Origin: a virus
Length of the DNA stretch: 26,690 bases
Strand: one strand, 5' to 3'
IMG/VR virus record: IMGVR_UViG_3300022745_000129
Coordinates: 1 to 26,690 of that record
Shown here: one piece after another, positions 13,599 to 23,283 of the stretch
How positions within the stretch are numbered: position 1 is the first letter of the stretch
Layout: each line of letters starts with the position of its first letter
Notes under the pieces: generated by a model
What the model was told of the DNA's origin: nothing
The model's database searches: none
What the model saw: the letters and a program-made list of their open reading frames with translations, nothing else
Position numbers and translations under genes: made by a program

Positions 13599-13760
13599 CT
13601 ATCTAAGATTGGTAGTACTGGTACTTTTGGTGATCCTCTGTGCCGTTGTCCGGCTCACGTGGTAACGATAGGCTAATTGCCCGCAACTTAGCCCTTGCTT
13701 GCGCTTTTGGCGCATCTCCTGCCGCTGCTGCTCACTCAGCTTTTTTCGTCGGTCCACCAT
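13599..13760 (-). CDS. Minimal helix-turn-helix regulator
   Basis: The 53-residue product consists almost only of a resolvase-type helix-turn-helix: LSEQQRQEMRQKRKQGLSC leads into QLAYRYHVSRTTAQRIT, the turn and recognition helix. There is no catalytic or sensor domain. It is transcribed away from the plus-strand operon, with two operator-like sites between them. By inference it represses or activates that operon and itself. The start is ATG with a G-rich sequence upstream; longer frames through the transposase are antisense shadow. Confidence 0.62.
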   Translation of the reverse strand: MVDRRKKLSEQQRQEMRQKRKQGLSCGQLAYRYHVSRTTAQRITKSTSTTNLR

Positions 13761-13789
13761 GCCCCGCCTTTGCCGCCTGCTCCCGCAAC

Positions 13790-13823
13790 ATTTTAGGGAC
13801 TTATATACCTGACTCCCTAAAAT
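13790..13823. promoter_or_regulatory. Operator-like inverted repeat, site 1
   Basis: Perfect ten-base arms ATTTTAGGGA and TCCCTAAAAT flank a 14-base centre containing TTATATAC. It lies between the divergent regulator gene and the plus-strand promoter, so it is a natural binding site for a dimeric regulator. The same core returns at two other places in the island. Confidence 0.62.
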
Positions 13824-13828
13824 AGTGC

Positions 13829-13857
13829 TTGACAACGGTGAGGGAGTTATATACAAT
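13829..13857 (+). promoter_or_regulatory. Sigma70-type promoter of the island operon
   Basis: TTGACA (-35) and TACAAT (-10) are separated by exactly 17 bases, the best promoter match seen in the window. The start of transcription would be near 13,864, 17 bases ahead of the first plus-strand ATG. Site 2 overlaps the spacer and -10 element, so a bound regulator would block polymerase. Confidence 0.7.
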
Positions 13858-13863
13858 GGAGTC
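13842..13863. promoter_or_regulatory. Operator-like site 2, overlapping the promoter
   Basis: GGGA, one base, then TTATATAC repeats the left part and core of site 1. The right arm (AGTC) is degenerate, so this would be a weaker or half site. It covers the -10 region of the plus-strand promoter. Confidence 0.5.
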
Positions 13864-13880
13864 AGAAAGTGAGGTTCCCA

Positions 13881-14117
13881 ATGATTAGCTTTTGGAAAGG
13901 CAGTTACGATTACAAGAGGGCGCTTGAATACGATTTCACTCCTATCGAGTCCACTCAAGTGCCCGGCTCTTTCTTCCGCTGCAAATGTAATCAATGCGGA
14001 AAGGTCTACAACATCAATCAGCGAATGAGAATTTGGCAACACAATTGGAAACACAAAAACGAAGATGCTGAGAGGGCGGGAACGTCGAATGTACCTCTCG
14101 GCATCATGGGGTTCTAA
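13881..14117 (+). CDS. Cysteine-containing small protein, first gene of island operon
   Basis: The 78-residue product starts MISFWKGSYDYKRALEYDFT and carries CKCNQC at residues 34-39, followed by a His-rich helix (WQHNWKHKNED). The Cys and His residues could form a small zinc site. AGTGAGG lies six bases before the ATG; a GTG four codons earlier is less likely. It is the first gene behind the strong promoter. No family recognised. One base separates it from the next gene. Confidence 0.6.
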   Translation: MISFWKGSYDYKRALEYDFTPIESTQVPGSFFRCKCNQCGKVYNINQRMRIWQHNWKHKNEDAERAGTSNVPLGIMGF

Positions 14118-14118
14118 A

Positions 14119-14373
14119 ATGGCAACCCTTACAACTAACCACATAGCAGCACAAGAAAGAAAACGATTGAAACGATTGAAGGTCAACGTGCAAGGGAAAA
14201 TCGTGGTTGAGGAGCACGGCATGTATGACTGGCTTGTGATGTTCCCAAGTGGCCGCATAGAACGCTTCCGCAACAAATCCGAGGTGGAAAGAGTCGCCAA
14301 GCAGTATTTCGCCAGACGGGCCAAAAAGGCGGCAATCAATGCAGGATTGATTGAATGGAGAGATAAACGATGA
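14119..14373 (+). CDS. Small basic protein of island operon
   Basis: This 84-residue protein is basic and mostly helical, with QERKRLKRLKVNVQGKIVVE near the start and QYFARRAKKAAINAG near the end, flanking a beta hairpin. It could bind DNA or RNA. Its stop overlaps the transposase start as ATGA, so both are translated together. Function unknown; an accessory to transposition is a reasonable guess. Confidence 0.58.
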   Translation: MATLTTNHIAAQERKRLKRLKVNVQGKIVVEEHGMYDWLVMFPSGRIERFRNKSEVERVAKQYFARRAKKAAINAGLIEWRDKR

Positions 14374-15287
14374 GCCGTTCGACAATCAGCACCTTCAAAC
14401 TCTTCGAGATGTTTCCTGACGAAGGCAGCGCGAGAACCTATCTGGAATCGCGGCTCTGGCCGAACGGCGTCACCTGCCCGGAGTGCAAGAGCATGGAGCG
14501 AATCACCGTCCGCAAAGACGGCTACTATCGCTGCAATCCCTGCAAATTGGACTTCACTGTCCGAACTGGGACCATTTTCGAGCGGTCGCACGTTCCGCTC
14601 CATAAGTGGCTCTATGCGATGTACCTGCTCGTTACAGCTCGCAAAGGCATTTCTTCGATGCAACTGGCGAAGGAAATCGGTATCACTCAGAAATCCGCGT
14701 GGTTCGTTCTTCACCGTCTCCGCGAAGCGTGCGGCAAGGACTTGGACAAACTGCGCGGCACCGTCGAGATCGACGAGACTTTCATCGGCGGTTTGGAAAT
14801 CAACAAGCACGAAGCCGATAAACAGAATCTCGGACGCGGCTCGGTTGGCAAGACTCCCGTACTCGGAATGCGGGAGCGCGGCGGTCGCACAAAGGCAATG
14901 CCTCTCAAGACCGTGAGCATGGAAGAAATCCAGAACGCGATTCACCGCAACGTCGAAGTCGGCTCGACTCTCTTCACTGATGAGCACGGAGCGTACAACG
15001 ACTTGGACGGCCTGTTCTTCCGGCAAGAGTGGGTCAACCATTCTGCGGGTGAGTACGTTCGCGGAGTCGCCAGGACGAACAGCATTGAGAGCGTGTGGGC
15101 CGTCCTCAAGCGCGGACTGCACGGCGTCTACCACCAAGTCAGCAAGAAGCATCTCGCCCGCTACGTTGCCGAGTTCACATTCCGGCTGAATCAAGGGAAT
15201 GTTGCTCGCCACACGCTCAAGCGGCTCGATTCGTTCGTGGACGCGGTTGTGGGGAAGCGACTCACTTACGAAAGGCTCACCGCATGA
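14370..15287 (+). CDS. tnpA: IS1595-like transposase
   Basis: The 305-residue protein has the IS1595/ISXO2 layout. An N-terminal zinc ribbon (CPEC at 36-39, CNPC at 55-58) is followed by helix-turn-helix-like AKEIGITQKSAWFVLHRLRE (100-119) and an RNase H-like core with VEIDETFIGG (Asp135), LFTDEHGAY (Asp204) and ARTNSIESVW (Asn237, Glu240), the DDNE-type set expected for the family. It appears intact. It is coupled at both ends (ATGA) to small genes in one regulated operon, instead of standing alone as in a simple insertion sequence. I could not find terminal inverted repeats. Confidence 0.9.
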   Translation: MSRSTISTFKLFEMFPDEGSARTYLESRLWPNGVTCPECKSMERITVRKDGYYRCNPCKLDFTVRTGTIFERSHVPLHKWLYAMYLLVTARKGISSMQLAKEIGITQKSAWFVLHRLREACGKDLDKLRGTVEIDETFIGGLEINKHEADKQNLGRGSVGKTPVLGMRERGGRTKAMPLKTVSMEEIQNAIHRNVEVGSTLFTDEHGAYNDLDGLFFRQEWVNHSAGEYVRGVARTNSIESVWAVLKRGLHGVYHQVSKKHLARYVAEFTFRLNQGNVARHTLKRLDSFVDAVVGKRLTYERLTA

Positions 15288-15400
15288 ACCGCGAACTCCT
15301 AGACCGAGTGACTGACCATGTGCTCGCATACCGTCCTAAGCCGAAGTCAAGGGCCGCGAAAAAGCGTGCCCGGAAGAAACGAAAAAAGAAAAGGGACTAA
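15284..15400 (+). CDS. 38-residue Lys/Arg-rich protein
   Basis: The product starts MNRELLDRVTDHVLAYRPKP, a short helix, and ends with a very basic tail of Lys, Arg and Ala residues. The ATGA overlap with the transposase stop supports translation. The charge suggests nucleic acid binding. Its TAA lies inside the third operator-like site and overlaps the stop codon of the convergent PAPS-reductase-like gene. Confidence 0.55.
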   Translation: MNRELLDRVTDHVLAYRPKPKSRAAKKRARKKRKKKRD

Positions 15401-15414
15401 TGTATATAATTCCC
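15393..15414. promoter_or_regulatory. Operator-like site 3 at the island's right edge
   Basis: GGGA, five bases, GTATATAA, one base, TCCC: the spacing is identical to site 1 read on the other strand, though the outer arms are shorter. It lies on the converging stop codons of the island operon and the PAPS-reductase-like gene. It may be a regulator site, a recombination end or a terminus of the element. Confidence 0.5.
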
Positions 15415-16044
15415 ATTAAATGCCCCTGGCGTCTCTTGCGCAATGCGTACCAGCTTGGGCAGGCTCTTTTTGTGGCAACAATCACAGTTCCCTTGATGGT
15501 CTTTCAATCCCAAGTCGAACGGCTGCTTCTTCCACCAATCTAAAATTTCCCACTTTAGAGTTGGCCAGATATGCATAAGTGGATACATCACGCCGAGTTT
15601 TGGCTTTGATCTGCGCGGTTCATCCAATCGAATGCCCTGCAAGATCTTGTAATCCTTCCAGCCGAGACCTTGAATAAAGCTACGGATAGGATTCGCTTTC
15701 AACTCCCGCGTGCAATGTAGATAGTTCATGTTGGCGATGCCGTACTTCTGGATCACAGCCTCGAACGGCTCGCCGTGTCTGCTTGCTGTCGCATGGTCAA
15801 CAATCTTGTGAGTACATCCAGTTCCGCGCTCGTTGACTACAGCTTCTACCCAAATAATTGGCAGGTTCCATTCTTCGGCGCAGCGGTGAACGAATAGCAG
15901 CGTTTCTTCACGCTCCTTGCCAGTGTTGGCGAAAACAACTATTAGCTCATTTGAATTAAACCAACCTTCCTCTAAGAGCTTCCATGTCATGTAAGCAGAA
16001 GATCGTCCACCTGAAAAGCTGACCAAGAATCGCTCACTCCCCAT
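15397..16044 (-). CDS. PAPS reductase-like PP-loop protein, C-terminus cut short
   Basis: The 215-residue protein has the PP-loop SFSGGRSSAYM (residues 9-19), VVFANTGKEREETL (36-49), LHCTRELK (109-116), GIRLDEPRR (137-145) and GNCDCCHKK (185-193). These are hallmarks of phage members of the PAPS reductase/adenine nucleotide alpha hydrolase superfamily, which activate substrates with ATP; the substrate here is unknown. Family members usually continue some 40-60 residues after the cysteine motif, with a tryptophan-rich and then basic segment. Here the frame ends at GAFNGNYIH inside operator-like site 3. The start ATG has GGAAGG upstream and overlaps the previous gene by eleven bases. Confidence 0.78.
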   Translation of the reverse strand: MGSERFLVSFSGGRSSAYMTWKLLEEGWFNSNELIVVFANTGKEREETLLFVHRCAEEWNLPIIWVEAVVNERGTGCTHKIVDHATASRHGEPFEAVIQKYGIANMNYLHCTRELKANPIRSFIQGLGWKDYKILQGIRLDEPRRSKPKLGVMYPLMHIWPTLKWEILDWWKKQPFDLGLKDHQGNCDCCHKKSLPKLVRIAQETPGAFNGNYIH

Positions 16045-16351
16045 TCCCCACCTTCCCCTCCAGCTTTCGGAGCGCATCGTCTGCTGCATTATACGCCCTG
16101 TCAATTAGTGCATCACCTTCCTTATTCGAACTGCCGGGAAAGTACCTCAACTCAGCTTGGCATAGGCGCAGGGCTTCCACCAACTCTTCAATCACCGGCA
16201 CCAGCTTGGCATGGTGAGCGGAGAGTTCGTCGGCGGCTTTCCGCATTCCCTCAACGTAATCTCTCTCCCAACTTGGCTCCATGCTCCCAATGGGTAACTT
16301 GCGCCATTTCTCCGCCAACCCCCCGTCCAGCAGCTTGGCTATGTCCATCAT
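16034..16351 (-). CDS. Hypothetical helical protein
   Basis: This 105-residue protein is helical throughout, beginning MMDIAKLLDGGLAEKWRKLP and continuing with LVPVIEELVEALRLCQAELR. GGAGAAACC precedes the double ATG, and the first ATG overlaps the upstream stop as ATGA. Small helical proteins of this sort are frequent in phage early operons. No family recognised. Confidence 0.6.
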   Translation of the reverse strand: MMDIAKLLDGGLAEKWRKLPIGSMEPSWERDYVEGMRKAADELSAHHAKLVPVIEELVEALRLCQAELRYFPGSSNKEGDALIDRAYNAADDALRKLEGKVGNGE

Positions 16352-22163: not shown

Positions 22164-22491
22164 CGGACAGGCTCCCGGTTTCTATCGGCTGTTCATCCTC
22201 AGCAAGTTTGCGAATGCTTGAATCGGGCAGTTGCTTGAGCAAACGAAGCATGATTCCATAGGCAATATGCGGATTGCCGCCGCTGTGCTCGATGTAGCGG
22301 TCAAACTGCTCATTGAAATCCGAATAGGTTTGATGGTTGTCCATCTCGCGGATAAAACGTGTCCGGCCTTCCTTGTTCTCCCGCCGCCGCTGTGCTTCGA
22401 GCCGTGGCAAGACCAACTTCGCAGGCTCCATGCCCCGGCCATGCTCAATTAGAAACTTGGCGTGCTCCAAAGCATCGTTAACGGTTGGCAC
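22156..22491 (-). CDS. Hypothetical helical protein
   Basis: The 111-residue product starts at GTG with GGAG seven bases upstream, reading MPTVNDALEHAKFLIEHGRG. It is helical and charged, with YIEHSGGNPHIAYGIMLRLL near residue 65-85. A TTG two codons earlier is an alternative. No family recognised. It overlaps the methyltransferase gene by 14 bases. Confidence 0.58.
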   Translation of the reverse strand: MPTVNDALEHAKFLIEHGRGMEPAKLVLPRLEAQRRRENKEGRTRFIREMDNHQTYSDFNEQFDRYIEHSGGNPHIAYGIMLRLLKQLPDSSIRKLAEDEQPIETGSLSDA

Positions 22492-23188
22492 GGTCAAACT
22501 CCAAGACTTCCTGGCTCAGCCGCTTGGCCGCAATTTCGCAGTACTTTTCTTCGATTTCTATGCCGATACACTTAACGCCTTGGACCTTGCAGGCGAGCGC
22601 CGTTGTGCCGCTGCCAAGAAACGGGTCAAGCACCAGGTCTCCGCCGTACCATCTCACAAGCCAGCGGACATGCTGCAATCGTCGGGCGCAGGGATGCGGC
22701 AAAGCTCCGTTATCGTGAGCGAGGGCAATATCCTTTCGCCGCGTAAAGTGCTTGTCTTTTCCAATCCATGTGGACCGTGTGAAGAGTTTGTCTGATTTGG
22801 TACTGATGTAGCGACCTGGCAGAAGTTTGCGGCCGAGATTCGGCAGTTCGCCAAAGGCATAGGCGATGTCGCCGCCCTGGACAATTCGCCCTTTGTAAGT
22901 CGGCCTTGCATAGTCCAAATCGCATACGCGGATGAATGGAAAGCGGTCCGGCACAGCAGCTAAGAATCGCGGGTCGGAGTCACAACCCATGTGAATGACT
23001 ACCCGCTTCGCCTTAACATCCTGGAGTACGTCGGTGAGCAGCTTCCGAGGATTCATGCCAGGGAACACACGCGAGGAGTTCGGCCAAATCGGGTCAGTGA
23101 TTACCGCATCGGCCAAGAATTCGCTTATCAACTCTCGCGCATCCCCGTGGTAAATTGTGATGCCCGCGTGCTCGTAGTAGGGCTTCAA
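22478..23188 (-). CDS. DNA methyltransferase, N4/N6 beta class
   Basis: The 236-residue enzyme has the catalytic motif TDPIWPN near residues 31-37 ahead of the S-adenosylmethionine-binding motif LDPFLGSGTT (187-196), the beta-class order of amino-methyltransferases acting on adenine N6 or cytosine N4. The usual motif is DPPY or SPPW; DPIW is unusual. HPCARR (165-170) corresponds to the HPxxKP segment. The start is TTG with GGAGG upstream and a TTGA overlap, giving MKPYYEHAGITIYHGDARE. No restriction partner lies beside it, so it probably modifies phage DNA against host restriction. Confidence 0.85.
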   Translation of the reverse strand: MKPYYEHAGITIYHGDARELISEFLADAVITDPIWPNSSRVFPGMNPRKLLTDVLQDVKAKRVVIHMGCDSDPRFLAAVPDRFPFIRVCDLDYARPTYKGRIVQGGDIAYAFGELPNLGRKLLPGRYISTKSDKLFTRSTWIGKDKHFTRRKDIALAHDNGALPHPCARRLQHVRWLVRWYGGDLVLDPFLGSGTTALACKVQGVKCIGIEIEEKYCEIAAKRLSQEVLEFDRANR

Positions 23189-23283
23189 CGGAGCCTCCAC
23201 TGCCGCTTGCGTTGCCTTGGAGACGCCCCTAGAGCCTGAACAGGGGTACGGGCTGTAAATTTAGAAGCGTCTCCAAAGATCAT
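23185..23283 (-). CDS. 32-residue linking gene
   Basis: The frame MIFGDASKFTARTPVQALGA then SPRQRKRQWRLR starts at ATG overlapping the RecT-like stop (ATGA) and ends overlapping the methyltransferase start (TTGA). The end is very basic. A ten-base inverted repeat lies inside it, so translation of this frame may control access to the downstream start. Function of the peptide unknown. Confidence 0.48.
   Translation of the reverse strand: MIFGDASKFTARTPVQALGASPRQRKRQWRLR
23217..23276. repeat. Ten-base inverted repeat with inner stem
   Basis: TTGGAGACGC (23,217-23,226) pairs perfectly with GCGTCTCCAA (23,267-23,276). An alternative inner pair CCCCT (23,226-23,230) with AGGGG (23,242-23,246) competes slightly. 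The transcript would fold just ahead of the methyltransferase start. Confidence 0.5.

What the first reader, a model, noticed from the sequence alone, without database searches (positions are those of the whole stretch)
13599..15414. Self-regulated IS1595-like transposase cassette inside a phage genome
Seen: the only plus-strand operon in the window has a divergent helix-turn-helix gene, a 17-spaced TTGACA/TACAAT promoter with overlapping operator-like sites, and four genes chained by overlaps (Cys protein, basic protein, transposase, 38-residue basic protein). Known: IS1595-type elements normally encode one transposase, and only some carry passenger genes. Inference: this may be an undescribed element that controls its own transposase tightly inside a phage.
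Basis: partly seen in the sequence, partly recalled or inferred. Interest (0 to 1): 0.72.

Follow-up and report, generated by a model that had tools for sequence, protein, structure and literature searches.

The report
Phage transposon carrying swappable genes
The island is a small transposon whose relatives are found in many uncultivated phage sequences; it may control its own promoter, and its relatives carry exchangeable genes, several of which look like DNA-modification genes that could help phages evade bacterial restriction.

Summary
The island is real: a 1,619-bp IS1595-family transposon (window 13796-15414) in a phage contig, with 22-bp inverted ends. A third copy of their outer 13 bp lies in its promoter, over the -10 box. 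Of 121 distinct transposase copies from IMG/VR contigs, 106 have an end pair and 81 a perfect 8-bp target duplication; with ends chosen blind to the duplication, 74 of 101, against 10 of 10,100 shuffled pairings. Near-identical copies sit in unrelated flanks. The core is the transposase plus, in most copies, a small Lys/Arg-rich protein overlapping its stop codon. Other genes differ between copies (202 of 226 ORF clusters are singletons, bacterial relatives included). Recognisable cargo is mostly DNA modification or restriction evasion (methylases, Mom, Lar, PAPS-reductase-like); most cargo is unannotated. Of 122 end-bounded elements, 29 lack a transposase; 11 of these carry such genes. The window's two cargo genes are of unknown function, its helix-turn-helix gene lies outside the element, and this copy lacks a target duplication and truncates a PAPS-reductase-like gene. 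New variant of a known kind (passenger-carrying IS1595). Mobility is firm; autorepression and the counter-restriction role are inferred.

The parts
13796..13817 (+). left terminal inverted repeat GGGACTTATATACCTGACTCCC
   Evidence: 1 mismatch to the search consensus; outer 13 bp exact to GGGANTTATATAC
15393..15414 (-). right terminal inverted repeat, GGGAATTATATACATTAGTCCC read on the minus strand; 18 of 22 positions equal the left one
   Evidence: 3 mismatches to the search consensus; the 18 of 22 was counted by eye
13829..13857 (+). promoter TTGACA-17-TACAAT
   Evidence: a similar layout recurs in relatives
13842..13854 (+). third copy of the end sequence (GGGAGTTATATAC) over the promoter spacer and -10: proposed operator for the transposase
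   Evidence: (-10 start) minus (site start) = 10 in 43 of 51 scored relatives
13881..14117 (+). cargo ORF 1, 78 aa, zinc-finger-like by eye (CxxC, HxxxH), unknown function
   Evidence: no family hit at E 0.1; no relative outside this phage
14119..14373 (+). cargo ORF 2, 84 aa, unknown function
   Evidence: relatives in the cargo position of L004 and L077 only; one sub-threshold Pfam hit, DUF5983 E 0.009
14370..15287 (+). IS1595-family transposase, 305 aa
15284..15400 (+). small Lys/Arg-rich protein, 38 aa, ATGA overlap with the transposase stop; runs into the right inverted repeat
13788..13795 (.). left flanking octamer ACATTTTA; does not match the right one
15415..15422 (.). right flanking octamer ATTAAATG; no target-site duplication at this copy
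15397..16104 (-). flank, not part of the element: PAPS-reductase-like phage gene truncated by the element's right end
   Evidence: the four relatives printed go on 62-74 residues further (counted by eye)
13599..13760 (-). flank, not part of the element: 53-aa helix-turn-helix ORF

Best explanation
13796-15414 is a passenger-carrying IS1595-family transposon belonging to a mostly phage-borne group. Shown by sequence comparison: copies have 22-bp inverted ends beginning GGGANTTATATAC and AT-rich 8-bp target duplications, have moved between unrelated phage contigs, and have a core of transposase plus, in most copies, a small Lys/Arg-rich protein overlapping its stop codon; the other genes are exchanged and sit before or after the transposase; transposase-free elements with the same ends are also inserted with duplications. 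Inferred: the transposase represses the operon by binding a copy of its end sequence laid over the -10 (cargo-first copies), or the end itself, whose TTGACT serves as -35 (transposase-first copies), which keeps transposition low; the small protein is an accessory DNA-binding factor; the cargo often benefits the phage by altering its DNA or relieving restriction, so the elements act as a traffic system for counter-restriction genes. The window copy inserted into a PAPS-reductase-like gene and its left side was later deleted or exchanged, so it has no target duplication. Its own two cargo genes are of unknown function.
For: Family. Ends. Target duplication: 74 of 101 copies with ends chosen blind to it, 10 of 10,100 shuffled partners. 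Recent moves: elements in L104, L135 and L143 are 99.7-99.9% identical with three different duplications and no flank match; L054/L061 96% likewise. Cargo turnover: 320 ORFs in 226 clusters, 202 singletons; cargo before the transposase in 74 of 106 viral copies, transposase within 120 bp of the left end in 30 of 106. Cargo kind: of 75 viral cargo ORFs of at least 115 aa, Pfam hits (E 0.01) to C5 methylase 8, N6/N4 methylase 4, PAPS reductase 2, Dam 1, Mom 1, Lar 1; 8 methylase, Lar or Mom matches among 138 non-redundant cargo ORFs against 1 among 138 size-matched flank ORFs (Fisher p 0.036; 10 against 1 with PAPS, p 0.010). Transposase-free elements: 29 of 122, 11 with such genes; a QueD-like protein in one more. 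Operator register: 43 of 51. The ORF overlapping the transposase stop changes mostly at third codon positions (181, 119, 579 differences at positions 1-3 in 57 pairs, no motif used).
Against: No experiment. The window copy itself lacks a target duplication and its cargo has no known function, so the counter-restriction role is a statement about the family. Most cargo ORFs have no annotation (10 Pfam families among 138). The enrichment in the non-redundant set is modest (p 0.036); the larger one used seeds taken from cargo of the same family. The promoter site reaches 10 of 13 matches in only 37 of 74 cargo-first copies, and in 23 of 74 at least 10 of 50 shuffles do as well. The small protein failed even the loose test in 38 of 121 copies. 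Relatives occur in bacterial records: up to 72% over the whole protein and 79% in a broken one, mostly MAGs, also one isolate (Novosphingobium marinum, 62%). That each IMG/VR contig is truly viral was not checked.
Confidence: 0.8

Rival explanations
1. An ordinary bacterial IS1595 element that happened to land in phages or prophages; its cargo is incidental and the family is no more phage-adapted than other insertion sequences.
For: IS1595-type elements with passengers are known (PMC5704250, passages).
Against: At 70% identity or more over nearly the whole protein 5 of the 37 genome copies remain, plus two cut by contig ends (L183, L190) and two broken or partial ones (L229, L248), from a 257-billion-base collection, while the capped list of 79 viral loci lies almost entirely at or above 70%. 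All 414 matching plasmid records are below 60%; 3 of 50,697 GenBank phage records match, below 40%. In the tree 119 viral and 20 genome rows group together (SH-aLRT 94) while the rows outside are genome rows only (root at midpoint).
Confidence: 0.15
2. A static phage operon: the transposase is domesticated and the small genes are phage genes at a fixed locus.
For: The window copy has no target duplication and its genes are tightly packed like phage genes.
Against: Conserved acidic residues are kept and both ends are present. Relatives have target duplications and unrelated flanks; shared sites were seen only between contigs with identical flanks. The element interrupts a gene that continues in relatives.
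Confidence: 0.03
3. Regulation by the adjacent helix-turn-helix protein.
For: It is divergent, close to the left end, and HTH-like.
Against: It lies outside the element, was found only in this phage, and the promoter site matches the element's ends, a layout seen in relatives that lack this gene.
Confidence: 0.04

Closest known systems
IS1595 family of insertion sequences, including passenger-carrying 'tIS' elements (MTnSag1/tISSag10, tISCpe8)
   Same: Zn-ribbon plus DDE_Tnp_IS1595 transposase and 8-bp target duplications (PMC8101967, passages); passenger genes in some members (PMC5704250, passages).
   Different: Here nearly every viral copy examined carries cargo and it differs between copies; a small Lys/Arg-rich protein usually follows the transposase; the promoter often holds a copy of the end sequence; recognisable cargo leans to DNA modification and restriction evasion; transposase-free cargo elements occur. 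PMC8101967 says that family members usually have a single transposase gene. The defining review (Siguier 2009) was not in the library and was not read.
Integrons and gene cassettes in phages (PMC9892861, search listing and start of abstract only)
   Same: Works like: a pool of exchangeable genes moved as small units among phages.
   Different: Movement here is by a DDE transposase with inverted ends and target duplications. Integron integrases and attC sites were not searched for.
Phage anti-restriction and DNA-modification genes (methylases, Mom, Lar)
   Same: The same protein families.
   Different: Here they are cargo of a transposon. That these families protect phages is recalled, not tested.

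Membership tests
IS1595 family | DDE_Tnp_IS1595 catalytic domain | tested here: met
   PF12762 E 3.9e-41; NF033547 198 bits, cut-off 75
IS1595 family | N-terminal zinc ribbon | tested here: met
   PF12760 E 2.7e-11; C36, C39, C55, C58 invariant in 26 sequences
IS1595 family | conserved acidic catalytic residues | tested here: met
   D135, D204, N237, E240 invariant in 26 sequences; that these are the catalytic ones is recalled, not shown
IS1595 family | terminal inverted repeats | tested here: met
   window ends; 106 of 121 viral copies have a pair. They start GG, which the passages of PMC8101967 state for the related Merlin elements
IS1595 family | 8-bp target-site duplication | tested here: met
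   for the group: 74 of 101 copies. The window copy itself: not met, ACATTTTA against ATTAAATG
IS1595 family | transposition shown experimentally | not testable with these tools
   only comparative evidence of movement
passenger-carrying IS1595 element (tIS) | genes unrelated to transposition between the ends | tested here: met
IS1595 family | named subgroup (IS1016, ISPna2, ISH4, IS1595, ISSod11, ISNwi1, ISNha5) | not tested
   no reference sequences of the subgroups were compared
phage integron cassette system | integron integrase and attC sites | not tested
   considered only as an analogy

The most novel reading that the evidence does not exclude
Uncultivated phages share a dedicated transposon-borne cassette pool, functionally like an integron pool: a self-repressing IS1595-type transposase, with a small basic helper, moves both itself and transposase-free cassettes that carry DNA-modifying and restriction-evading genes, so phages can swap counter-restriction functions independently of homologous recombination; bacterial relatives of the element carry restriction-modification genes.
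Probability: 0.4. Interest if true: 0.87.

Novelty: new variant of a known kind. Interest (0 to 1): 0.7.

Why it matters
Phages are said typically to have few, if any, transposable elements (PMC9600943, passage, citing Leclercq and Cordaux 2011, not read). A transposon group common in environmental phage contigs, but with no close relative among 50,697 GenBank phage records or 72,556 plasmid records, would be a missed route of gene flow between unrelated phages. Because recognisable cargo points to DNA modification and restriction evasion, the inverted ends give a sequence handle for finding new counter-defence genes: whatever lies between two such ends is a candidate, including the many cargo families without annotation.

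Tried and rejected
Helix-turn-helix gene as part of the element: rejected, outside the left end. A fixed phage locus: rejected. PDB searches with the transposase profile, the terminase and the 784-aa protein gave nothing. AlphaFold models of the two window cargo proteins: the 84-residue one pLDDT 74.6 with no PDB match at E 0.001 or better; the 78-residue one pLDDT 59, not interpreted. A 215-residue protein in the L086 cassette looked to me like a tRNA-guanine-transglycosylase relative, but the PDB search found nothing, so I do not claim it. Mom-like readings of the L127 and L148 cassettes by eye were not confirmed (no Mom-profile match in those two records), nor was a methylase reading of L139 (no PF01555 match); none is counted. 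A PF01555 match in the record of L111 was not placed.

Faults in my own steps: the first small-protein selection test returned nothing because of a wrong pattern. redid it, but its stretches were chosen by an amino-acid motif, which itself favours conserved first and second codon positions; one search repeats it without a motif. L263 was split wrongly (a 4.3-kb composite), and its 787-residue ORF was left out of A2 and A4. Cargo ORFs were called mechanically, so some are surely not genes. Identical copies were dropped before the counts; one search shows what that hid (5 pairs of shared sites). In one search flank genes were counted after dropping repeats; keeping repeats gives the same 18.

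Literature: ten searches; no listed title or abstract start describes IS1595-type cargo elements as a phage group. Several lists were cut (15 of 26; 20 of 314; 15 of 4,834, none of the 15 holding IS1595). Only passages of PMC8101967, PMC5704250, PMC9600943, PMC3852290 and PMC2784084 were read. Siguier 2009 and ISfinder were not available, so an earlier description cannot be excluded.
Full report
What is there. The window is a whole IMG/VR record of 26,690 bases with a terminase large subunit (phrog_979 E 4.8e-40) and a weak major-head-protein match (phrog_14242 E 5.3e-07), so it is a phage contig. GGGANTTATATAC with at most one mismatch occurs exactly three times in it, 0.02 expected: at the left end of the island, inside its promoter, and inverted at its right end. 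The island is therefore 13796-15414, with 22-bp inverted ends, the promoter TTGACA-17-TACAAT (13829-13857), two small cargo genes, an IS1595-family transposase and a 38-residue basic protein. The helix-turn-helix ORF is outside.

It belongs to a mobile family. In IMG/VR 135 stretches by single-sequence patterns and 494 by profile patterns encode relatives of the transposase (the best 80 kept each time). Among 121 distinct viral copies (at least 50% identity over more than 240 residues; identical copies dropped) 106 have a pair of ends and 81 a perfect 8-bp duplication. That choice of ends favoured duplications; with ends chosen on the inverted repeats alone it is 74 of 101, against 10 of 10,100 with shuffled partners, and the duplications are 84% A+T. 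Three elements 99.7-99.9% identical over 1,561 bp lie in L104, L135 and L143 with three different duplications and no flank match. No two of the 106 elements with a perfect duplication (81 viral, 25 from genome loci) share a site; identical copies had been dropped, and keeping them, 49 loci of the first scan give 5 pairs at one site, each with identical flanks, i.e. nearly the same phage twice. Insertions fall inside mechanically called ORFs in 38 of 70 cases, 55.9 expected at random.

The window copy. Its flanking octamers do not match. On the right it ends in a PAPS-reductase-like gene on the other strand; four relatives of that gene printed go on 62-74 residues further (my count), so the gene is truncated. 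The left flank showed no remainder of it. The simplest reading is insertion into that gene followed by loss or exchange of the left side. Relatives of the same gene can themselves be cargo: L324 is a complete element with a target duplication holding transposase and this gene; L325, cut by the contig start, has part of the transposase, the gene and the right end; L326-L328 and L330 have the gene and the right end but no transposase detected; L323 and L329 have neither end.

Core and cargo. A small protein with the motif LDxIxDxVLxYRP and a Lys/Arg-rich tail follows the transposase: strict motif in 74 of 121 viral copies, in 62 of these starting in the 4-nt ATGA-type overlap with the transposase stop; 83 of 121 by a looser test at that position. 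Taking whatever ORF begins there, with no motif, differences between similar copies fall at codon positions 1, 2 and 3 as 181, 119 and 579 (57 pairs, 47 of 116 distinct stretches, pairs not independent), as expected of a protein under selection; one search agrees but was chosen by motif. Other genes vary: in 134 elements, bacterial relatives included, 320 ORFs of at least 45 aa fall in 226 clusters, 202 of them singletons, and the largest cluster (61 elements) is the small protein. Cargo lies before the transposase in 74 of 106 viral copies; in 30 the transposase is within 120 bp of the left end and the cargo behind it is longer (median longest ORF 250 against 121 aa). The window's 84-residue protein has relatives in the cargo position of L004 (left end damaged) and L077, beside different genes.

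What the cargo does. In 138 non-redundant viral cargo ORFs Pfam recognises C5 methylase 2, N6/N4 methylase 2, PAPS reductase 2, Lar 2, Mom 1, Dam 1 and one each of four other families. In 138 size-matched ORFs from the flanks one methylase was found among 23 families. 8 against 1 (without PAPS) gives Fisher p 0.036, 10 against 1 gives 0.010, taking each match as a different protein. In all 75 viral cargo ORFs of at least 115 aa, related copies included and E up to 0.01: C5 8, N6/N4 4, PAPS 2, Mom 1, Dam 1, Lar 1, and seven other families with one each. Thirty cargo ORFs (at least 140 aa) of bacterial relatives hit C5, EcoRI-type, Eco57I and N6/N4 methylases, Vsr, GmrSD and HNH, besides unrelated families such as KilA-N, P63C and Tlde1. 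Counter-restriction in phages is inferred from these families.

Transposase-free elements. Over all held viral loci, requiring at most 3 mismatches per end and a perfect duplication, there are 122 elements: 87 with a full transposase, 6 partial, 29 with none (305-1,371 bp). Eleven of the 29 (N6/N4 9, PAPS 1, Mom 1), 17 of the 87 and 0 of the 6 match methylase, PAPS or Mom seeds. The seeds came from cargo, and 9 of the 17 seed loci are in this set, which favours the result; leaving out the one seed among the 29, 10 hits in 24.7 kb compare with 18 in 1,042 kb of flank. Profiles confirm N6/N4 methylase in the records of L099, L105 and L163, Mom in L099 and L312 and a QueD-like protein in L086; that the matches lie inside the cassettes is read directly for L105 and inferred from frame lengths and offsets for L099, L163 and L086. 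L127 and L148 gave no Mom match and L139 no PF01555 match.

Regulation. In 43 of 51 scored cargo-first copies the end-like site and the -10 box have the same spacing; the site reaches 10 of 13 matches in 37 of 74; in 28 of 74 none of 50 shuffles does as well, in 23 of 74 at least 10 of 50 do. Part of the fixed spacing follows from shared TA-rich letters. In 20 of 30 transposase-first copies the TTGACT of the left end is itself the best -35 (my count). Both layouts would let transposase binding shut its own promoter. This is inference.

Where the group lives. The viral list, capped at 80, lies almost entirely at or above 70%. Plasmids: 414 records, all under 60%. GenBank phage records: 3 of 50,697, under 40%. 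A quick tree of 153 transposases puts 119 viral and 20 genome rows together (SH-aLRT 94) with genome rows only outside, 14 label changes against 31 in shuffles (root at midpoint). Whether the genome rows are prophages or mis-binned phage contigs, and whether every IMG/VR contig is viral, was not determined. Both collections were ranked by likeness to the window protein, so this describes its near kin, not all IS1595 elements.

Known and new. IS1595 elements with 8-bp duplications, some with passenger genes, are known. Not found in the ten searches: a mostly phage-borne group with exchangeable cargo in nearly every copy, a small partner protein, a promoter copy of the ends, a lean towards DNA-modification cargo, and transposase-free cargo elements. 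Most of the relevant literature (Siguier 2009, ISfinder) was out of reach.

Noticed in passing
L111:477-1956: Two transposase-free elements lie back to back with the same octamer CTATATTG before, between and after them, as if one inserted into the other's target duplication.
   Followed up: no
L013:8613-9542; also L028, L032, L043: Contigs holding a second, distant IS1595-like transposase (35-40% identity to the window's, partial in L043) besides the close one.
   Followed up: no
L066:6001-6916: This copy's transposase matches in two pieces, so the gene looks broken although an end pair and the 8-bp duplication are present.
   Followed up: no
L189:5921-6868: In a bacterial relative the small-protein motif is the N-terminus of a larger cargo protein, as if fused to it.
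   Followed up: no
window 22481-23200 (-): The same phage carries a separate DNA methyltransferase outside the element (phrog_67 E 6.9e-27).
   Followed up: no
L086:9791-10945: Transposase-free cassette with a QueD-like gene, perhaps a 7-deazaguanine DNA-modification cassette (the pathway is recalled).
   Followed up: partly
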